Shown one piece after another: positions 12,378 through 21,366 of a stretch of 64,000 nucleotides of DNA. Each line of letters begins with the position of its first letter. The stretch's first letter is position 1. A program made the position numbers and the translations under genes. Source of the stretch: Parablautia sp. Marseille-Q6255 (GTDB lineage Bacteria; Bacillota; Clostridia; Lachnospirales; Lachnospiraceae); contig NZ_CATNVD010000007.1 of the NCBI RefSeq assembly GCF_951230155.1, positions 1-64,000 on the forward strand, read 5' to 3'. The notes below the pieces were generated by a model. It did no database searches. It was not told where the DNA came from and saw only the letters and a program-made list of their open reading frames with translations.

Positions 12378-13481
12378 TTATGTAAAAAAAACTTCCAACC
12401 CCCGCTTCTGCGCTTCCTCCAGAAGCTCTTCATTTTTTTTGTTCATTGCTGCGAATGTTTTCACACAACAGACAACCTTCTGACACTGTGCAAGCACTTT
12501 TTTGGCTTCCTGCAGCGCATCCTCTCCTATCGGCTCAAATGACTGTTCTGTTATGACACGGCATGCCAGAAATTTCGCCACTGCATAGTCTACATCATTT
12601 TCATGCAGAACACCTGCAGCAAAGGGGATCCCCTGCCTTTGGAGCTTCCGGTATACCGGTATTCCTCTCCCGTTTCCTCCGATGACAAAAATCTGAGGCT
12701 CTCCCTGTGGGCGCGCCATCTCCAGGCAGCCAAAATCAGCGTTATAGCTTCCGCTTGTCATGCCATAGAGCGTATGTATATATTCGTTTGTAAAAATCTC
12801 TTCCGGTGTCCCAAACCGCTCGATCGTATCTCCGTGTACGCAGACTACGATATCTGAAATCTTCTGCGCCAGATCAAGCTCATGCAAAGACATGATCACT
12901 GCCAGATTCTTTTCCAGCACCATATTTTTCAGAATGCCAAGCAGCTCCAGCTTATGACGGATATCCAGAAAAGACGTTGGCTCATCCAAAACGATCACCT
13001 CCGGCTCCTGGCAGATCGCCCTTGCAAGGAGCACCCGCTGGCGCTGTCCGTCACTGATCGCTGTAAAATCTTTATCCTTCAGCTCCAGGGCATGCACCAG
13101 CTCCATTGCGCTGTACACCTTCTGCCGGTCTGTATCGCTTAAGATGCCCAGCCTTCCCGTATAGGGATAGCGTCCTGTCGAAACAATATCCTCACACGTC
13201 ATAAGCTCTGTGTGCATCCGTCCCGTCATTACAACAGCCAGCTTTTTTGCCACCTCTTTTCCTGACATGTGATGCATCAGCTCACGATCCAGGTAAACTG
13301 CTCCCCCGATGAGGGAAAGCTGCTTGGTGATACTTTTTAATATGGTTGACTTGCCTGCTCCATTTGGCCCGATCAGTGTCAGGATCTGGCCGCGCTTTAA
13401 ACGGATCTCAATATCCCGGATCAGCGGTTTTCCGTCATATCCTACCGTCATTTTATCTGTATATACGAAATAATCGTTCAT
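12378..13481 (-). CDS. btuD: Corrinoid/iron-type ABC importer ATPase with C-terminal extension
   Basis: ATPase of a FecCDE/BtuCDF-type importer. Walker A is GPNGAGKST near residue 40, the signature is altered to ISDGQRQR (usually LSGGQ), Walker B is VIVLDEPTSFLD and the H-loop is MSLHELD. Residues about 260-367 form an extra domain (IFVIGGNGRGIPVYRKL and CQKVVCCVKTFAAMNKKN) not found in standard BtuD or FepC; it has Rossmann-like alternation and could sense a ligand. The ATG at 13481 follows GAGGCAGG; a GTG at 13487 is possible. It is the last gene of a cobalamin-riboswitch unit, so a corrinoid substrate is likely. Confidence 0.85.
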   Translation of the reverse strand: MNDYFVYTDKMTVGYDGKPLIRDIEIRLKRGQILTLIGPNGAGKSTILKSITKQLSLIGGAVYLDRELMHHMSGKEVAKKLAVVMTGRMHTELMTCEDIVSTGRYPYTGRLGILSDTDRQKVYSAMELVHALELKDKDFTAISDGQRQRVLLARAICQEPEVIVLDEPTSFLDIRHKLELLGILKNMVLEKNLAVIMSLHELDLAQKISDIVVCVHGDTIERFGTPEEIFTNEYIHTLYGMTSGSYNADFGCLEMARPQGEPQIFVIGGNGRGIPVYRKLQRQGIPFAAGVLHENDVDYAVAKFLACRVITEQSFEPIGEDALQEAKKVLAQCQKVVCCVKTFAAMNKKNEELLEEAQKRGLEVFFT

Positions 13482-13483
13482 GC

Positions 13484-14500
13484 TCACACCTGCCTCTGTC
13501 TGCGGATCATAATATAAATTACAACGGGAGCCCCGAATACTGCCGTCACAGAGCTGATACTGAGCTCAGTCGGCGCAAATACCGTCCTTGCGATCAGGTC
13601 GCAGCCCAGGCAAAACACTGCCCCGCCCAGAAAACAGGCCGGGATCACCAGGATCGGCTTCGATGTCGCAAGGAGGTTTTTTGCCAGATGCGGTACAGCG
13701 ATCCCCACAAATGAAATCGGGCCCGCAAAGGCTGTCACACATGCGGATAAGATACTCGAAAGCAGGATCAGCGCAATACGGAACAGCCGGATATTCACTC
13801 CCATATTCTGCGCATACGCTTCACCCAGCTGATAGGCGCTGATCGGCTTGGACATTAAAAAGGTGAGCACAAGTGTCACAAGGATCACAACAGACATGAT
13901 TTTCACATTTTCCCAGGACATTCCGGAAAAGCTGCCCATAGACCAGTTATGCAGATTTACGATATTGCTGTCATCTGCAAAGGTGATCACAAAATCTGTC
14001 ACTGCAGAACAGATATAGCCTATCATGATCCCGCTGATCACAAGTATTGACATGCTTTTTACCTGCTTTGAGATCAAAAGGACAAACCCCATAGAGATCA
14101 TGGAGCCTGCAAAAGCTGCAAGGATCAGCACGCCGGAGCCTGCTACCATAGATTTTTCCAGAAGGTAGATCATGACGAAAGAAACGATCAGCTTTGCTCC
14201 CGATGAAATGCCAAGTACAAACGGACCTGCGATCGGATTGCCAAAAAAGGTCTGAAGCAAAAAGCCTGACACGGAAAGCGCACCTCCCAGAATAATAACA
14301 GCAAGTATTCTCGGCATACGGATCTCCCAGACAATATTTATCGCAGTCTCCTCACCTGTGCGGCAGAAAATAATATCCAGAATTTCTTTTACAGAAAGCT
14401 CTACACTTCCTGCGTTAATATTCCATACCGTAAATAACATGAGCAAAACTGCAAGCACTGCAAAAGCAACACAGTACCTGCCATTTGACCTTTTTTCCAT
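13484..14500 (-). CDS. btuC: FecCD/BtuC-family ABC permease
   Basis: A 338-residue inner-membrane permease with about 9-10 hydrophobic segments. Family signatures include EIRMPRILAVIILGGALSVSG near residue 60-80, then GNPIAGPFVLGISSGAK, and near the C-terminus AFAGPISFVGIAVPHLAKNL. It follows the binding-protein gene after 10 bases, with AAGGAG before the ATG, and its stop overlaps the start region of the ATPase gene. It would move the ligand across the membrane. Family members carry siderophores, haem or corrinoids; the riboswitch upstream argues for corrinoid. Confidence 0.9.
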   Translation of the reverse strand: MEKRSNGRYCVAFAVLAVLLMLFTVWNINAGSVELSVKEILDIIFCRTGEETAINIVWEIRMPRILAVIILGGALSVSGFLLQTFFGNPIAGPFVLGISSGAKLIVSFVMIYLLEKSMVAGSGVLILAAFAGSMISMGFVLLISKQVKSMSILVISGIMIGYICSAVTDFVITFADDSNIVNLHNWSMGSFSGMSWENVKIMSVVILVTLVLTFLMSKPISAYQLGEAYAQNMGVNIRLFRIALILLSSILSACVTAFAGPISFVGIAVPHLAKNLLATSKPILVIPACFLGGAVFCLGCDLIARTVFAPTELSISSVTAVFGAPVVIYIMIRRQRQV

Positions 14501-14510
14501 AATCGTCTCC

Positions 14511-15662
14511 TTATTTTAACCGGTGCATATAGGTAAGCTCTGTAAGAGAAGCATCCTCACTTGTAAACATCCGATGCATATCCTCGATCATCACACCGAG
14601 CCCCGTCGTCTCCTGAAAAAGATTTTTTCCGGTGCACCAGGCATTTCCTTCCTTTACCGCCTTAAAATCTGCAAGAAGCGGGCTTTTTTCCAGAAGCTGG
14701 TCGATCGTCTCAAGCTCTCCGTCGATTGCGCTGTTGTAGATCAGATAGTCCGCGTCCTTTGCTCTCGCATAAAACTCTTCCATCTGCATATTCATTGTAG
14801 AAAGCGCATTGTCCTCTTCTCCCAGATCATCAAAAATATACCGGCCGCCTGCCAGTTCGATCATTTTAGAAACATAATCTCCACTTTTGCGTACATTTGC
14901 ATAGCCATTTGTGCTGATGTAAAAAAAAGCTGCCGTCTTGCCTGTATTTTTTTCTGAGAGGACACTCTGCAGACGGTCTGACTGTTCCTGAAATACCTTC
15001 TGTGCCTGTTCCTCTTTTCCAAGCAGGACTCCGTAAAGCTTCATCCATTCGGTACGTCCAAGGGGATGACTTTCATAGCTGGAACGCTCCACCAGAACTG
15101 GTATCCCAAACTGTTCCAGCCTCTCTTTTACCTCGGGATTGTGATAGATCATCGTGGACTCCACTGCCAGATCACACTTTTCTGAGACGATCCGTTCATA
15201 GTCAGGTGCATTATATTTTCCCGCGTATGCGATCGTCCCCTGCTCCATCGCTTTCTTTGCCTCTTCAATATACCAGCCATCCGCATCCGTACCTGACAGT
15301 GTGATACACTCCAGCCCGCCGATCGAGCAAAACAGATCCATAGCAGAGGTAGCCACCAGATAAATATGATCCAGAGGCTGCTGCAGCAGGACGATATCTT
15401 CATCCAGCTCCTTTGGTACTGCTCCATTTTCCGGAACAAGCAAAAAACGTCCTCCATCTGCAATGGATATCAGCGCATATCCGTCATTATAATAATCTAC
15501 TGCAAACTGATCTGCATACAAAAGCTCCAGACTGCCCGTCACTTCCATGTCCTTCCACAAAAGCTCTTTTGCTCCTGCCGTTGTCTCCTGCCTGATACAC
15601 AGGCAGAAGAAGATCAGAAATATCAGAACAGGCTTTTGAAGCACTCCTTTTTTTGTTTTCAT
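14511..15662 (-). CDS. ABC importer substrate-binding protein (BtuF/FepB-like)
   Basis: The N-terminus has a hydrophobic export segment (VLIFLIFFCLCI) but no clean lipobox, so anchoring is uncertain. The mature part has the two-lobe Helical-backbone binding-protein layout: VLLQQPLDHIYLVATSAMDL, GTIAYAGKYNAPDYERI, IPVLVERSSYESHPLGRTEW, and a distal lobe with ARAKDADYLIYNSAID. It overlaps the upstream surface-protein gene by 4 bases (ATGA). It delivers the ligand to the permease/ATPase pair downstream. A corrinoid ligand is inferred from the riboswitch; haem or another tetrapyrrole is the alternative. Confidence 0.82.
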   Translation of the reverse strand: MKTKKGVLQKPVLIFLIFFCLCIRQETTAGAKELLWKDMEVTGSLELLYADQFAVDYYNDGYALISIADGGRFLLVPENGAVPKELDEDIVLLQQPLDHIYLVATSAMDLFCSIGGLECITLSGTDADGWYIEEAKKAMEQGTIAYAGKYNAPDYERIVSEKCDLAVESTMIYHNPEVKERLEQFGIPVLVERSSYESHPLGRTEWMKLYGVLLGKEEQAQKVFQEQSDRLQSVLSEKNTGKTAAFFYISTNGYANVRKSGDYVSKMIELAGGRYIFDDLGEEDNALSTMNMQMEEFYARAKDADYLIYNSAIDGELETIDQLLEKSPLLADFKAVKEGNAWCTGKNLFQETTGLGVMIEDMHRMFTSEDASLTELTYMHRLK

Positions 15663-16642
15663 TTGTCCGCCTTTTCCAGTGTCGTAGAATCAAAGTACAG
15701 GGTATAATCAATTTCATGCGGCGTGCTCATTGCGACCGTATCCGCTGTCACTGCAAGCTCCCCGTCAAAGCCCGCTACCGGAATCTCAAATACAGAGTTT
15801 CCTTCTGTATTGACCGTCATATATTTTTCCCCGTCAACTACCATATAATCATAGTTCGGACTGCTCCATGTGATCACTGCGACCACCTCGCCGTCTGTTA
15901 CGGTAAGCTGCGCCGGACTCTCCACGGTAGATTTCCCGGAGCCGCCCTCCAGTGTGACCTCTGCCATATAGCTACCGTCACTGATCCCAAGCGTTTCTGC
16001 CGATGCCAGAGCAGAATCACCTTCTTTTTCTTCTGACTGGCCTTCCTGCTGCGCCCCTTCCTCTAAAACTACCGGGTCGCTCACACTGACCTTATGGTCA
16101 TACCACTTTCCCTTTTTCCCGATCAGCGCCACATCAAACTCTTCCTCCAGTACCGGCACCGGAATATCAAAGCCGTATACCGTCTCTGTATAGCCATCGC
16201 TGTATGTGACGGTATCCTCTGTCGGATCAAGCAGCTGTGCCCCCTCTTTCTGCGCATCTTCTGCCAGCCCCGGAAACAGATTCAAGATTCCTTTCGATGC
16301 AAGGCTTACGTGGATCGTCATCTGACCATCCTCCACAGTCAGTACACCGCGTCCTTCCTTTGCTTCATTCACATGGAACATCGAGCTGTCTGTATCAAAT
16401 CTGGCGCTGTAGATGCCATCCTCCAGCTGCTCCTTCGTCTCTGTCTGCATTTCCTTTTCCGTCTCAGAAGCTTCCTCCGTCTGCACCTGTTCCGCCTCAG
16501 AAGCCTCCTCCGTCTGCATCTGCTCCACTGCCTCTGTTGCTGCCTCTGTTGCTGTCTCCTGCGCATATGCTGCAGGGGCTGCAGCTGCAAGTGTCATAGC
16601 AGTACCTGCCATACATACATAAAATCTGACTGAACGTTTCAT
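15659..16642 (-). CDS. Exported protein with two NEAT-like domains
   Basis: A signal peptide spans about residues 1-28 (MAGTAMTLAAAAPAAYAQE). An acidic low-complexity linker with repeated QTEEASEAEQ follows. Two beta-rich domains then begin with parallel motifs: EDGIYSARFDTD...VLTVEDGQMTIHVSL, and SDGSYMAEVTLEGG...QLTVTDGEVVAVITW. This spacing resembles NEAT (haem-binding) domains of Gram-positive surface proteins. No sortase motif or C-terminal membrane anchor is seen. The ATG at 16642 has AGGGAG 8 bases upstream. Lying between an exported CbiK-like protein and the importer, it is probably the extracellular capture or relay component. NEAT membership rests on eye-level similarity only. Confidence 0.65.
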   Translation of the reverse strand: MKRSVRFYVCMAGTAMTLAAAAPAAYAQETATEAATEAVEQMQTEEASEAEQVQTEEASETEKEMQTETKEQLEDGIYSARFDTDSSMFHVNEAKEGRGVLTVEDGQMTIHVSLASKGILNLFPGLAEDAQKEGAQLLDPTEDTVTYSDGYTETVYGFDIPVPVLEEEFDVALIGKKGKWYDHKVSVSDPVVLEEGAQQEGQSEEKEGDSALASAETLGISDGSYMAEVTLEGGSGKSTVESPAQLTVTDGEVVAVITWSSPNYDYMVVDGEKYMTVNTEGNSVFEIPVAGFDGELAVTADTVAMSTPHEIDYTLYFDSTTLEKADK

Positions 16643-16741
16643 ATTATCTTCTCCCTTCATAAAAAGCTGCCCGGGAATCCGCATGCGGTCCGGGCAGCCA
16701 GATCTTACTTTATCTGCTGTTTACTGTGTCCAGATCTGTCC

Positions 16742-17986
16742 TCATTCTGCCATCGAATCAATAGCTGCCTGCGTATGTGCGACATAAAGCTCTTTTATCG
16801 CATCAATTCTTCCAAGTCCTGCGATCTGCGCGTCTACGCGTTCAAAATCTCCGGAGGCTTCAAACATGCTCTTCCAGGAATCAGCTTCACTGCCTGCCAT
16901 ATCATTATTTGCATGATCTCCTGCAACTACCATCAGCGGCCGCAGGATGACCTTCGTAAATCCGGCTTCCTTCACAGCCTCGATGACCGCCTCACATGCA
17001 GTATCCTCCGGCTCTCCTTCTACCGTTCCGATAAACGCATTTGTATATCCCAGCTGTGCCATCTGCGTCTGCATCTGACTGTAGCTTACCTTTGCAGTAT
17101 GAGAAGTGCCATGTCCAAGGAAAACAAAGGCTGTGCCATCCTCCTCTGCCGCCTTCATGCTGTCAAATCCGGCATCCAGAACCGCGGCATCCACAACTGC
17201 CTGTGCCACTGCTGCTTTATCCTCATTGATCACGGTTGCGTCATCGCCTACTTCTCCAAGCATCGGCTCTGCGATGACTACTGATTCAAACTGGTCTGCG
17301 TACTGATCCAGCATCTCCTTCATCTCGTCATATTCTGCACCGTGCATCAGATGTGTTGGCTGTACCACCAGATTCTTTACACCATTTGCCACCGCACGGT
17401 CAAGCGCCTGCTGCATATTGTCGATCTTTTCCCCGTCTCTTGCCTGTACGTGATTGATAATGATCTGAGCTGTAAATGCTCTTCTTACAGACCAGTCCGG
17501 GTATGCCTGCGCCAGCGCGTCTTCGATTCCCTTAATGTCCTCTACGCGGCTGTCATTATAAGATGTACCAAAGCTTACAACAAGCAGCTCATTTTCACCG
17601 ATCTCATCTGCATTGCGCGCATCATCCAAAGAAGCGTCCCCGGTATCCAGACCGAAATAATCAGGGCTCGCGTTTTCTCCCTCTACTAAGGCTTTTTCCT
17701 CCTCACTTAACGCATCCCACGCTTCCTTTGCAGCCGCACAGTCATCATCTGTCGTATCGGTGCGTTCCTGCACGTAGATTGCGTCAATCAGTTCTGCCGC
17801 CTTATCTGCTGCCGCCTGTGCGTCTGCGGTATTCTCTGATTCTGAGGCTTCCTCTGCCGCTTCTTCGAGCGATTCTGTCGCGCTTTGTGTCTGCCCCTCC
17901 TGTGCCATACCAGCCGTGCCGGTAAGCATTGCTGCGGTCGATACCGCCAGTCCGAGTACCATTCCTTTTACTACTTTGTTTTTCAT
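16742..17986 (-). CDS. cbiK: Exported CbiK-type sirohydrochlorin cobaltochelatase
   Basis: CbiK inserts cobalt into sirohydrochlorin at the start of anaerobic cobalamin synthesis. The chelatase domain starts near residue 133 (ELLVVSFGTSYNDSR). Candidate active-site positions are His212 in QPTHLMHG, Glu240 in IAEPMLG, and His292/His296 in LGHGTSH, followed by RPLMVVAGDHANNDMAG. Unlike the cytoplasmic enzyme, it begins with a signal peptide (about 1-28, ending GTAGMAQE) and an Ala/Glu-rich spacer of about 100 residues. It should therefore act outside the membrane, as reported for the periplasmic CbiK of Desulfovibrio. It is the first gene after cobalamin riboswitch 1 and heads the importer unit. 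Confidence 0.88.
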   Translation of the reverse strand: MKNKVVKGMVLGLAVSTAAMLTGTAGMAQEGQTQSATESLEEAAEEASESENTADAQAAADKAAELIDAIYVQERTDTTDDDCAAAKEAWDALSEEEKALVEGENASPDYFGLDTGDASLDDARNADEIGENELLVVSFGTSYNDSRVEDIKGIEDALAQAYPDWSVRRAFTAQIIINHVQARDGEKIDNMQQALDRAVANGVKNLVVQPTHLMHGAEYDEMKEMLDQYADQFESVVIAEPMLGEVGDDATVINEDKAAVAQAVVDAAVLDAGFDSMKAAEEDGTAFVFLGHGTSHTAKVSYSQMQTQMAQLGYTNAFIGTVEGEPEDTACEAVIEAVKEAGFTKVILRPLMVVAGDHANNDMAGSEADSWKSMFEASGDFERVDAQIAGLGRIDAIKELYVAHTQAAIDSMAE

Positions 17987-18175: not shown

Positions 18176-18247
18176 TCATCAAAAAAAGTGCTAAAAGCTC
18201 CTTCACTGGTACAACCAATTACTCGTGATCTGGAACATCAAGTTCCC

Positions 18248-18430
18248 GTACCAACACCGGGCAGGTTTCCTGGCTTATAGATCATCATATACGGCGCCTT
18301 CCCAGATTTCCCCAGTGACGTTCCTGCTTTCGCAGTGCCGTATACTCCTTAAATACAGTGACGAGATCGTACAGGATTCTCACCTGTTTCCCTTTTCGGC
18401 ATATACGATATACATGCCGCACCCGCTGTT
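18248..18430 (-). ncRNA. Cobalamin riboswitch 1 (upstream of cbiK unit)
   Basis: The minus strand reads GGGAAACAGGTGAGAATCCTG, cut here, then GTCACTG, a later GGGAAGG and finally AAGCCAGGAAACCTGCC (complement of 18259-18275), which is the classical B12-box end. Order and spacing match the long cobalamin riboswitch with the P3-P6 core. A promoter lies just upstream and a terminator just downstream. It should switch off cbiK, the surface protein and the importer when cobalamin is plentiful. Confidence 0.9.
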
Positions 18431-18452
18431 TTCTTATTCTGTTGTCTTTGTT

Positions 18453-18490: not shown

Positions 18491-19177
18491 TCAGCCTTCT
18501 TCCCTGGCAATGATCAGAGAATAATACCCTGCATCCTCCGGTATTTCTTCCAGACTCCTGTAGACCCGCTCGTTTGCCATACCGCAGTTTTCTACCATAC
18601 ATACCTCACGCCCGCTTGCCTGAAGAAGCTGCTTGACCTGATCCATTTTTCGCCCGGACTTCATCACAACATAAGTCCCCGGCTGGTCGAGCCTGCCGTC
18701 CAGTCGATGTACGCCCGGGATTACGTGGAGCGGCTCATTCCATTCTACAAGCGGCAGATTCAGTCTGGCTGCTGCTGCACAAAACGATGTGATCCCGCTC
18801 ACAAAAGCAGTCTCGTATCCCTGATCCTCCACCCGTTTTTGCAGATATGTAAAGGTAGAGTAGACTACAGGATCTCCCAGTGTCAAAAACACTACATTTT
18901 TTCCCTGTTCCAGATACGACAGGATCCGTTTTGCACCCTTTGCATGATTCTCCTCAAGCTCTCTGCGGTCATGTGTCATAGGCATGTAGACCGGGAGCAG
19001 CTCCTTATCCGCAAGCTCCGGCACTGCCTGCACCGCAATCTGATAGGCTACCGTATCCTCTACCTGCGCTCCTGCTGCCGCAATCACCTCGTTCTCCCGG
19101 ATCATACGCACTGCCTTTAATGTCATCAGCTCCGGATCCCCGGGGCCTACGCCTACTCCATATAAAATTCCCTTCAT
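18491..19177 (-). CDS. cbiL: Cobalt-precorrin-2 C20-methyltransferase
   Basis: A SAM-dependent tetrapyrrole methylase that methylates C20 of cobalt-precorrin-2. The SAM-binding start YGVGVGPGDPELMTLKAVR and the later LTLGDPVVYSTF and SGITSFCAAAARLNLPL are typical of CbiL/CobI. Length (228) is normal. It is the last gene of the main cob operon, 39 bases after cbiC. The IS110 element upstream of cbiC could reduce its transcription. Confidence 0.93.
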   Translation of the reverse strand: MKGILYGVGVGPGDPELMTLKAVRMIRENEVIAAAGAQVEDTVAYQIAVQAVPELADKELLPVYMPMTHDRRELEENHAKGAKRILSYLEQGKNVVFLTLGDPVVYSTFTYLQKRVEDQGYETAFVSGITSFCAAAARLNLPLVEWNEPLHVIPGVHRLDGRLDQPGTYVVMKSGRKMDQVKQLLQASGREVCMVENCGMANERVYRSLEEIPEDAGYYSLIIAREEG

Positions 19178-19216: not shown

Positions 19217-19858
19217 TCAGTCCCGTTTGTCGTCTATCATATAAAGCAGCGCATTGCAGATGCACGCAGCAATATTGCTCCCGCCCTTGCGCCCGCGCGC
19301 TACGATATACGGCTTCCCGCTTTGCATGATCAGCTCCTTGGACTGTACTACATTGACAAATCCTACCGGAACACCGATGATCAGCGCCGGATCGATGCGC
19401 CCCTCCGCGATCAGCTCATACAGTCTTACAAGCGCCGTCGGAGCGTTTCCGATCGCAAATATCAGTTTTTTGTTCATTGCAGCAGCTTTATCCATGCATG
19501 CGGCTGCTCTCGTTGTCCCATCCCGCTTCGCAGTCATTGCCACATCCTCGTCTGACATAAAGCAGTACACCTCTGCTCCATAGCGTGCGAGCGCACGCTT
19601 ATTGATCCCTGATCTGGCCATCTGCGTATCTGTCACGATACATACACCGCTTTTTAGCGCCTGTGTCGCCTTTTCGATCGCGTTTTCTGAAAAACACAGA
19701 TTTTGTGCATAATCAAAATCAGCGCTCGTATGGATACACCGTTTCACGATGAGCTCTGTTCCGGGGACAAGCGGCGTATCTCCAAGCTCCTGCGTAATGA
19801 TCTCAAAGCTTCTTTTTTCAATCTCCATCGGTCTGACTTTTTCCAGCTCTGTCTTCAT
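19217..19858 (-). CDS. cbiC: Cobalt-precorrin-8 methylmutase
   Basis: CbiC moves a methyl group from C11 to C12 to form cobyrinate. Key motifs are PMEIEKRSFEII at the N-terminus, the catalytic His in KRCIHTSADFDYA near residue 43, VTDTQMARSGINK, and IGVPVGFVNVVQSKELI. Length (213) is typical. Its ribosome binding site (GAAGGGAG) is intact directly before the ATG, but the sequence beyond is the left end of an IS110 element that now separates it from cobQ. Expression therefore depends on read-through or on a promoter inside the insertion. Confidence 0.94.
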   Translation of the reverse strand: MKTELEKVRPMEIEKRSFEIITQELGDTPLVPGTELIVKRCIHTSADFDYAQNLCFSENAIEKATQALKSGVCIVTDTQMARSGINKRALARYGAEVYCFMSDEDVAMTAKRDGTTRAAACMDKAAAMNKKLIFAIGNAPTALVRLYELIAEGRIDPALIIGVPVGFVNVVQSKELIMQSGKPYIVARGRKGGSNIAACICNALLYMIDDKRD

Positions 19859-19948: not shown

Positions 19949-20130
19949 GATGGAGCAATCGGTATGTCGGCTTCCTTTCTTGGACTTCGCGTCCGTTAAG
20001 TAGACTGATAACCAGCTCCTCATTCGCAGCGTTCGTTTTATGCAGGTTGAATCGCCTTAGGCGCATTCGTGTCACACCACAGTAGATTGAATAGGCAATG
20101 AGTAAAACTGGTATTTATCCATTGCATGAT
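19949..20130 (+). ncRNA. Candidate bridge RNA in IS110 left end
   Basis: IS110-group elements encode a structured bridge RNA in their left non-coding end that guides recombination. Here a TATAAT (19943-19948) is followed by hairpins including GGAC-5-GTCC (19982-19994) and GAAT-CGCC-3-GGCG-C-ATTC (20049-20068), ahead of the transposase start. An upstream CCTTAC-5-GTAAGG hairpin (19900-19916) lies near the tip. RNA limits and the guide loops are not determined. Confidence 0.5.
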
Positions 20131-20154
20131 CAATTTTTAAGGAGTGACAAATTT

Positions 20155-21366
20155 ATGAACGCAGTAGGTATCGATGTTTCTAAAGGTAAAAGCATGGTTG
20201 CTATTATGCGCCCTTTTGGCGAAATTGTTGCTACGCCTTTCGAGATCAAACACACAGCCAGTGATATTAATTCACTTATAGAACTCATCAACTCCATTGA
20301 AGGTGAATCCCGCATCGTGATGGAGCACACCGGACGTTATTATGAAGTCCTTGCCCATCAGCTTTCCCAGACAAATCTTTTCGTCAGCGCCATTAACCCA
20401 AAACTTATCAAGGATTTTGATAATGATTCCCTTCGCAAAGTCAAATCTGACAAAGCTGACGCCGTCAAAATCGCCCGATATGCACTTGACAAGTGGCAAA
20501 ATCTCAAACAGTATAGTGTTATGGATGAATTACGCAATCAGCTCAAAACCATGAACCGTCAGTTCGGCTTTTATATGAAACACAAGACGGCTATGAAGAA
20601 TAACCTCATCGGCATCCTTGATCAGACCTATCCTGGCGTCAATACCTACTTTGACAGTCCTGCACGTAGTGACGGCAGCCAGAAATGGGTTGATTTTGCA
20701 TCTACTTACTGGCATGTGGACTGTGTTCGTAAAATGTCTCTAAAAGCCTTCGTAGACCACTATCAAAAGTGGTGCAAAAGAAAGAAGTACAACTTCAGCC
20801 AATCCAAAGCTGAGGAAATCTATGGAAAAGCAAAGGAGCTTGTTCCTGTACTTCCAAAGGATGAAATAACCAAACTTATCATTAAGCAAGCGGTTGACCA
20901 ACTCAATAATGCCTCGGCAACTGTAGAAGAACTTCGCACTCTTATGAATGAAACAGCCTCTAAGCTGCCCGAATATCCCATCGTCATGCAAATGAAGGGC
21001 GTAGGTCCATCACTTGGTCCTCAACTCATGGCTGAGATCGGCGATGTTTCCCGTTTCACTCACAAAGGCGCAATTACAGCTTTCGCCGGTGTAGACCCTG
21101 GTGTAAATGAATCCGGCTCTTATGAACAAAAGAGTGTTCCAACCTCCAAACGAGGTTCCGCAGACCTCCGCAAGACACTTTTTCAGGTAATGGATGTTTT
21201 AATCAAAACCATGCCTCAGGATGATCCAGTTTATAAGTTCCTTGATAAAAAACGAGCACAAGGTAAACCTTATTACGTCTACATGACCGCCGGAGCTAAT
21301 AAATTTTTACGGATCTACTATGGTCGGGTGAAAGAATATCTTTCGTCACTTCCAGAGTCCGAATAA
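20155..21366 (+). CDS. IS110-family transposase (DEDD recombinase)
   Basis: The N-terminal RuvC-like DEDD domain shows VGIDVSKGK (first Asp), VMEHTGRYYE (Glu) and VKSDKADAVKIA (Asp residues). The C-terminal Tnp_20 domain shows MKGVGPSLGPQLMAEIGDV, AGVDPGVNESG and the catalytic-Ser stretch SKRGSADLRK. Length is about 403 residues, complete. The ATG at 20155 has AAGGAG (20139-20144) 10 bases upstream; an ATG at 20098 lies inside the structured left end and is less likely. The gene looks intact, so the element may be active. Confidence 0.92.
   Translation: MNAVGIDVSKGKSMVAIMRPFGEIVATPFEIKHTASDINSLIELINSIEGESRIVMEHTGRYYEVLAHQLSQTNLFVSAINPKLIKDFDNDSLRKVKSDKADAVKIARYALDKWQNLKQYSVMDELRNQLKTMNRQFGFYMKHKTAMKNNLIGILDQTYPGVNTYFDSPARSDGSQKWVDFASTYWHVDCVRKMSLKAFVDHYQKWCKRKKYNFSQSKAEEIYGKAKELVPVLPKDEITKLIIKQAVDQLNNASATVEELRTLMNETASKLPEYPIVMQMKGVGPSLGPQLMAEIGDVSRFTHKGAITAFAGVDPGVNESGSYEQKSVPTSKRGSADLRKTLFQVMDVLIKTMPQDDPVYKFLDKKRAQGKPYYVYMTAGANKFLRIYYGRVKEYLSSLPESE

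What the first reader, a model, noticed from the sequence alone, without database searches (positions are those of the whole stretch)
15659..17986. Exported cobaltochelatase-like CbiK paired with a NEAT-like surface protein and importer under a cobalamin riboswitch
The CbiK has a signal peptide and an Ala/Glu-rich spacer of about 100 residues before an apparently intact chelatase domain. The next gene encodes an exported protein with two NEAT-like domains, followed by a full FecCD/BtuC-type importer. A metal-inserting or tetrapyrrole-handling enzyme outside the cell feeding an importer would be an unusual extracellular tetrapyrrole salvage system. Periplasmic CbiK is known in Desulfovibrio, but a Gram-positive operon with a NEAT-like partner is not familiar to me.
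Basis: partly seen in the sequence, partly recalled or inferred. Interest (0 to 1): 0.7.

Follow-up and report, generated by a model that had tools for sequence, protein, structure and literature searches.

The report
Exported cobalt chelatase with tetrapyrrole importer
Many gut Lachnospiraceae and some relatives carry a vitamin-B12-regulated operon in which an exported cobalt-inserting enzyme, a haem-carrier-like surface protein and an importer appear to work together, probably to feed an early B12 precursor from outside into B12 synthesis; no function has yet been measured.

Summary
Downstream of a cobalamin riboswitch (18441-18243, 86 bits) the minus strand encodes an exported CbiK with an intact active site, a protein whose two domains both take the NEAT fold, and a complete SBP/FecCD/ATPase importer, directly after a full corrin-ring operon. 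It is not a local oddity: in 59 of 65 named loci with enough flank the five genes stand in this order, and 72 of 80 loci have the riboswitch. CbiK-NEAT, NEAT-SBP and ATPase-CbiD fusions tie the parts together. Of 61 NEAT-positive genomes 60 have CbiD, against 26 of 83 others. Most telling, 17 relatives have CbiD but neither HemB nor HemC; in 13 of them the only CbiK found is NEAT-linked (an export signal in all 12 inspected). Best reading: an extracellular chelate-and-import system that supplies a cobalt-loaded early tetrapyrrole, such as cobalt-sirohydrochlorin, to corrin synthesis. It resembles P. gingivalis Iht/FetB and Desulfovibrio CbiKP; the NEAT relay in a Gram-positive is the new element. 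Ligand and activity are inferred. The window's own organism also makes tetrapyrroles and has a cytoplasmic CbiK, so here the system is an addition.

The parts
18243..18441 (-). cobalamin riboswitch aptamer RF00174, 256 nt upstream of the exported CbiK start
   Evidence: cmscan 86.2 bits, cut-off 31.5
16742..17986 (-). exported CbiK (414 aa): signal peptide, acidic linker, conserved segment, chelatase domain
   Evidence: PF06180 236 bits; nearest solved 1qgo, FetB 9b86, 2xvx; signal peptide
17903..17986 (-). signal peptide of CbiK (about residues 1-28)
   Evidence: heuristic: hydrophobic core 2.13, 3 K/R
17636..17821 (-). conserved segment between linker and chelatase (about residues 56-117)
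   Evidence: conservation in an alignment of 94 exported CbiKs
16754..17590 (-). CbiK chelatase domain (residues 133-411) with conserved His/Glu residues
   Evidence: alignment to 1qgo; residues invariant
15659..16684 (-). exported protein with two NEAT-fold domains
16064..16423 (-). NEAT domain 1 (about residues 88-207)
15674..15991 (-). NEAT domain 2 (residues 232-337)
14511..15662 (-). substrate-binding protein, Peripla_BP_2
   Evidence: PF01497 113 bits
13484..14500 (-). FecCD/BtuC-type permease
   Evidence: PF01032 273 bits; best NCBIfam BtuC, below cut-off
12378..13487 (-). ABC ATPase with C-terminal extension
   Evidence: ABC_tran 97 bits; best NCBIfam corrinoid ATPase PRK09536 over residues 12-353, below cut-off
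18491..19177 (-). cbiL, C20 methyltransferase
   Evidence: TIGR01467 205 bits, above cut-off
19217..19858 (-). cbiC
   Evidence: PF02570 273 bits
21521..32561 (-). corrin operon cbiD, cbiF, cbiG, cbiH, cbiJ-ET, cbiA, cbiB, cobD, cobQ
   Evidence: NCBIfam

Best explanation
A cobalamin-riboswitch-controlled chelate-and-import system for an early B12 precursor. When cellular B12 is low the operon is expressed (inferred from the riboswitch). CbiK is exported and, in many relatives, probably lipid-anchored; outside the membrane it inserts cobalt into a scavenged metal-free tetrapyrrole, most likely sirohydrochlorin. The two-NEAT protein takes the cobalt-tetrapyrrole and hands it to the SBP, and the FecCD/ATPase importer brings it in, where CbiL and the rest of the corrin pathway finish B12. 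Shown by sequence: gene order, riboswitch, export signals, intact active site, NEAT folds (predicted), fusions, near-restriction to corrin-ring makers. Inferred: that the enzyme is active outside, that the ligand is (cobalt-)sirohydrochlorin, the order of hand-over, and the direction of regulation.
For: Synteny in 59 of 65 named loci with enough flank; riboswitch in 72 of 80 loci, median 224 nt before the CbiK start. Fusions in the 80 loci: CbiK-NEAT 8, NEAT-SBP 5, ATPase-CbiD 2; more in unnamed relatives. Export: hydrophobic core at least 1.78 in 117 of 117 long-N CbiKs, 77 with a lipobox; at most 1.65 in the 24 scorable of 27 short ones. Equivalents of His145, His207 and Glu89 in 119 of 119 rows (2 of these are CbiO-CbiK fusions). 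60 of 61 NEAT-positive genomes have CbiD, 26 of 83 others; outside the window's genus 18 of 19 against 22 of 78. 17 genomes have CbiD but neither HemB nor HemC: 15 NEAT-positive, and in 13 the only CbiK found lies beside NEAT, against 4 of 69 with HemB or HemC (counted by hand; Fisher 5e-9, not corrected for kinship). In the window's family the CbiX-model matches all lie on CbiK loci, compared by eye. In the window cbiL directly precedes the unit.
Against: No biochemistry. The window's organism has HemB, HemC and a cytoplasmic CbiK beside hemA, so it should not need the system to make B12. CbiK is far below the NCBIfam cobaltochelatase equivalog cut-off (194.5 against 400). The nearest exported solved relative, FetB, is described as acting on protoporphyrin IX with Mn (review passages). 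A corrinoid-type ATPase and permease would fit import of finished corrinoids as well. 45 of 69 corrin makers with HemB or HemC are NEAT-positive too, so the enrichment of NEAT alone in hem-negative genomes is not significant (p 0.08). 8 of the 13 sole-CbiK hem-negative genomes are in one genus, all are draft assemblies, and the CbiK of G009 is a fragment. Four of the 13 (G005, G022, G041, G043) have a strong Met8/SirC-type match, a possible cytoplasmic chelatase. cbiL was found in only one hem-negative genome that has the system (G005), in partial stretches.
Confidence: 0.5

Rival explanations
1. A cobamide/cobinamide importer: the CbiK relative and NEAT protein only bind finished corrinoids at the surface and pass them to a BtuFCD-type importer; chelation plays no part.
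For: Cobalamin riboswitch; permease and ATPase closest to BtuC and the corrinoid ATPase models, though below cut-offs.
Against: Catalytic residues not lost in any of 119 rows; NEAT almost confined to genomes that make the corrin ring (60 of 61), whereas a salvage importer should be common in non-producers; only the NEAT-linked CbiK kept in 13 of 17 hem-negative corrin makers. The intended control with the other riboswitch-linked SBP was uninformative (2 of 144).
Confidence: 0.25
2. Haem or porphyrin use: CbiK removes or swaps the metal of haem outside, and NEAT and importer take up iron-porphyrin or porphyrin.
For: NEAT folds match haem-bound NEATs; the FetB/IhtB relative is treated as haem-related.
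Against: Cobalamin riboswitch in 72 of 80 loci; 45 of 80 loci carry another cob gene within the fetched flanks; near-restriction to corrin makers.
Confidence: 0.1
3. Cobalt acquisition: CbiK and NEAT serve as extracellular cobalt-binding receptors, and the importer carries cobalt bound to a small carrier.
For: Cobaltochelatases bind cobalt; riboswitch control fits cobalt import; cytoplasmic-type CbiK is in one frame with a CbiO-like ATPase in L073 and L189.
Against: NEAT domains and FecCD importers handle tetrapyrroles and siderophores rather than free ions (general knowledge); does not explain the hem-negative pattern.
Confidence: 0.1

Closest known systems
Porphyromonas gingivalis Iht system (IhtB = FetB, PDB 9b86)
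   Same: Exported CbiK relative with an SBP, permease and ATPase of the same system (PMC10913741 passages); chelatase motifs intact in the alignment. P. gingivalis lacks the steps to precorrin-2 (PMC6461909 passage), like the hem-negative relatives here.
   Different: Gram-negative with a TonB receptor IhtA; no NEAT protein in the passages read; interpreted there as haem/iron or Mn-porphyrin. That IhtB and FetB are one protein is recalled.
Desulfovibrio CbiKP (PDB 2xvx)
   Same: Periplasmic CbiK; a cobalamin riboswitch is reported near cbiKP in O. alaskensis G20 (PMC11124144 passage).
   Different: No NEAT protein mentioned in the passages seen; Gram-negative periplasm.
Isd/NEAT haem relay of Gram-positives
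   Same: NEAT-fold surface carriers passing a tetrapyrrole to a membrane importer (review passage; folds).
   Different: Cobalamin riboswitch; a chelatase in the relay; window protein below the Pfam NEAT cut-off.
BtuCDF corrinoid importer
   Same: Riboswitch; BtuC and a corrinoid ATPase are the best models.
   Different: Below their cut-offs; extra chelatase and NEAT protein.

Membership tests
CbiK chelatase (PF06180) | Pfam score over cut-off | tested here: met
   236.2 against 26.2 bits
CbiK chelatase (PF06180) | catalytic His145, His207, Glu89 equivalents | tested here: met
   the two His from PMC4063343 passages, Glu89 recalled
biosynthetic sirohydrochlorin cobaltochelatase (NF047852) | equivalog cut-off | tested here: not met
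   194.5 against 400
biosynthetic sirohydrochlorin cobaltochelatase (NF047852) | cobalt insertion activity | not testable with these tools
   needs an enzyme assay
exported CbiK of Iht/CbiKP kind | signal peptide | tested here: met
   heuristic scan
exported CbiK of Iht/CbiKP kind | linked SBP, permease and ATPase | tested here: met
P. gingivalis Iht system | TonB-dependent receptor | tested here: not met
   none among the genes annotated between 12378 and 32561; not expected in a Gram-positive
NEAT domain (PF05031) | Pfam score over cut-off for the window protein | tested here: not met
   22.5 against 32.8; 56 of 67 alignment members at E up to 0.01
NEAT domain (PF05031) | NEAT fold | tested here: met
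NEAT domain (PF05031) | axial tyrosine of the YxxxY motif (recalled) | tested here: inconclusive
   domain 2 has an invariant HxxxY (H323, Y327, 67 of 67); no residue-level superposition available
BtuCDF | NCBIfam equivalog cut-offs | tested here: not met
   BtuC 215.9 against 334, ATPase 212.1 against 537
cobalamin riboswitch RF00174 | gathering score | tested here: met
   86.2 against 31.5
tetrapyrrole precursor salvager (Shelton et al.) | corrin pathway without early tetrapyrrole genes | tested here: not met
   window genome has HemB and HemC; 17 of 144 genomes searched have CbiD without either

The most novel reading that the evidence does not exclude
The tetrapyrrole works as a cobaltophore in a two-way cycle: some relatives export metal-free sirohydrochlorin through an ABC-2 exporter encoded with cbiL, an ATPase, in some a cytoplasmic-type CbiK, and a further NEAT protein; the surface CbiK loads it with cobalt outside, and the NEAT/SBP/FecCD importer brings it back. 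The exporter module stands next to or within the importer unit in L077, L091, L114 and L126 and its permease occurs in 12 of 144 genomes, all NEAT-positive (partly by the exporter's own NEAT protein). The window's genome has no such permease at E 1e-20, so here only the import half could operate.
Probability: 0.12. Interest if true: 0.92.

Novelty: new variant of a known kind. Interest (0 to 1): 0.72.

Why it matters
Bacteria that build the corrin ring but cannot make tetrapyrroles were predicted to take up a precursor (PMC6461909, passages), and no importer was named in the passages I read. This operon is a candidate that can be tested directly, is common in gut Lachnospiraceae such as Blautia, and would mean that a biosynthetic metal insertion takes place outside the cell. 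It also gives NEAT domains a role tied to B12 rather than iron and offers a new reading of the P. gingivalis Iht system.

Tried and rejected
Plain BtuF-like control: the other riboswitch-linked SBP of this genome (L059) occurs in 2 of 144 genomes at E 1e-20, so it could not serve as a contrast. A first impression that hem-negative operons lack cbiL was dropped: my ORF caller had missed cbiL in G005 (L195), found by stop-to-stop frames; its status in the other hem-negative genomes with the system stays open, and 528 kb (overlaps included) of the 3.2 Mb of G050 gave no clear cbiL (best 40.7 bits, a CbiF-CbiG protein). The idea that an extra His common in exported CbiKs (90 of 119 against 2 of 27 rows) is the CbiKP haem ligand was dropped, as CbiKP has Pro at that column. 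Sequence search of the NEAT alignment against the PDB gave 0 matches; only the fold search placed it. Met8/SirC-type enzymes in 17 genomes whose only CbiK is NEAT-linked (13 without and 4 with HemB or HemC; G000 searched besides): strong matches in 8 of 17, so cytoplasmic insertion by such an enzyme is not excluded. Counts from the greedy ORF caller were replaced by those. Literature: none of searches showed me a CbiK-NEAT or NEAT-cobalamin system; two searches returned 0 papers, but searches listed only part of their hits (37: 20 of 587). Most subscription papers are not held.

Papers: PMC13402209, PMC13227078, PMC11124144, PMC4063343, PMC6461909, PMC7689651 and PMC10913741 were seen as passages found by terms; the others only in search listings; Phonok 2026 was not held and is cited through the review. 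The roles of CbiK Glu89 and of the NEAT axial Tyr are recalled.
Full report
What is there. The minus strand of the window carries cbiD, cbiF, cbiG, cbiH, a cbiJ-ET fusion, cbiA, cbiB, cobD and cobQ (32561-21521), with an IS110 transposase on the other strand (20098-21366), then cbiC and cbiL (19858-18491), a cobalamin riboswitch (18441-18243), an exported CbiK (17986-16742), a two-NEAT protein (16684-15659), an SBP, a FecCD permease and an ABC ATPase down to 12378. CbiL acts on the compound that CbiK makes (general pathway knowledge), so the unit begins at that step.

Export and active site. In a heuristic scan (best start codon, hydrophobic core, lipobox) 117 CbiK frames with a long N terminus all had a core of at least 1.78 on the Kyte-Doolittle scale, 77 with a lipobox; of 27 frames with a short N terminus 24 could be scored and none exceeded 1.65. 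The scan chose implausible upstream starts in L096, L173 and L186, where a plausible signal peptide lies further down, with a lipobox in L096 and L186. Two more long frames, L073 and L189, are fusions of a CbiO-like ATPase with a cytoplasmic-type CbiK and were left out of the 117; L116 and L146 are cut at the contig end and fell among the 27. The equivalents of His145, His207 and Glu89 of Salmonella CbiK are kept in all 119 long and all 27 short rows. On a quick tree of 146 rows the export label needs 5 changes against 25 in shuffles, with those four rows mislabelled, and 120 of the rows, nearly all exported, form one starred group. Between signal peptide and chelatase lies a conserved segment (94 sequences).

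Conservation. The NEAT protein matched 61 of 144 genomes, the window's own included (some matches, such as G054 and G076, are weak). A cbiK lies directly upstream in 73 of 76 loci with room; of 65 with room on both sides 59 have all five genes in order; the six others are L077, L097, L111, L114, L119 and L141. A riboswitch model built from 26 riboswitches (at least two of them, L038 and L041, are also among the 80 loci as L076 and L093) found 74 sites in 72 of 80 loci, all on the coding strand, median 224 nt before the CbiK start over 73 frames measured, with two unexamined outliers, L095 and L140. Of the eight loci without a site five (L103, L104, L112, L116, L146) begin inside or within about 250 nt of cbiK; L088, L114 and L148 remain.

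Link to corrin synthesis. 60 of 61 NEAT-positive genomes have CbiD against 26 of 83 others (Fisher 2e-18), and outside the window's genus 18 of 19 against 22 of 78 (9e-8); these tests ignore kinship. 17 genomes have CbiD but no HemB and no HemC: G005, 9, 16, 22, 27, 28, 41, 43, 44, 50, 55, 69, 80, 86, 105, 130, 138. Fifteen are NEAT-positive, although G027 matches only by the exporter-linked type and G086 mainly by the large repeat type. In 13 the only CbiK found is beside the NEAT gene; I inspected 12 of these and all have an export signal (the G009 gene is a fragment and was not fetched). Among 69 CbiD genomes with HemB or HemC this holds for 4: G003, 48, 75 and 83 (Fisher 5e-9). G050, one of the 13, is rated 100% complete but is a draft of about 70 contigs. 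Of these 13 plus 4 genomes, a strong Met8/SirC-type match is missing in nine, all hem-negative (G009, 16, 28, 44, 50, 55, 69, 80, 105), and present in G005, 22, 41, 43 and in the four hem-positive ones. In G005 cbiL lies near cbiD. If these strains make B12, the simplest route is that cobalt is inserted by the exported CbiK and the product imported.

The export side. A second unit, cbiL, ATPase, ABC-2 permease, in some a cytoplasmic-type CbiK, and a NEAT-like protein, was seen through its permease in 12 of 144 genomes; in 11 a NEAT match lies on the same contig, so their being NEAT-positive is partly due to this unit itself. It adjoins or interleaves with the import unit in L077, L091, L114 and L126. 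This suggests, but does not show, a cycle of export, loading and re-import. The window's genome has no such permease at E 1e-20.

Placement. The Iht system of P. gingivalis consists of a TonB receptor, the CbiK-like lipoprotein IhtB, an SBP, a permease and an ATPase, thought to take iron from haem, and IhtB production is said not to be under PgFur control; a review describes FetB as making Mn-protoporphyrin. Shelton and co-workers defined tetrapyrrole precursor salvagers, mostly Firmicutes, and noted that P. gingivalis lacks the steps to precorrin-2. A cobalamin riboswitch near cbiKP is reported in Oleidesulfovibrio. The present operon is the Gram-positive counterpart with a NEAT relay added. 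What it works like is better supported than any single substrate: in my judgement about 0.85 that it handles a tetrapyrrole in the service of B12 synthesis or uptake, about 0.5 for the cobalt-sirohydrochlorin model.

Noticed in passing
window 20098-21366 (+): IS110 family transposase between cobQ and cbiC on the opposite strand.
   Followed up: no
G000:C7:137998-138126 (L059): A further cobalamin riboswitch precedes a second SBP/FecCD/ATPase importer; its SBP occurs in only 2 of 144 genomes searched.
   Followed up: partly
G000:C23:34487-34667 (L057) and G000:C17:76793-76994 (L058): Cobalamin riboswitches upstream of an SBP_bac_5 transporter and of a run beginning with a lactate-dehydrogenase-like gene and an Fe-S/flavin reductase-like gene.
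   Followed up: no
L067 7738-10974, L068 3306-11075, L069 7023-11810: Large surface proteins of 952-1595 aa with repeated NEAT-like domains and a partial SBP, or Big_2 repeats, under cobalamin riboswitches and followed by SBP/FecCD/ATPase.
   Followed up: partly
L073 and L189: Cytoplasmic-type CbiK in one frame with a CbiO-like ABC ATPase, suggesting cobalt import coupled to insertion.
   Followed up: no
L042 12832-14784, L128, L134: Importer ATPase fused to the corrin enzyme CbiD.
   Followed up: partly
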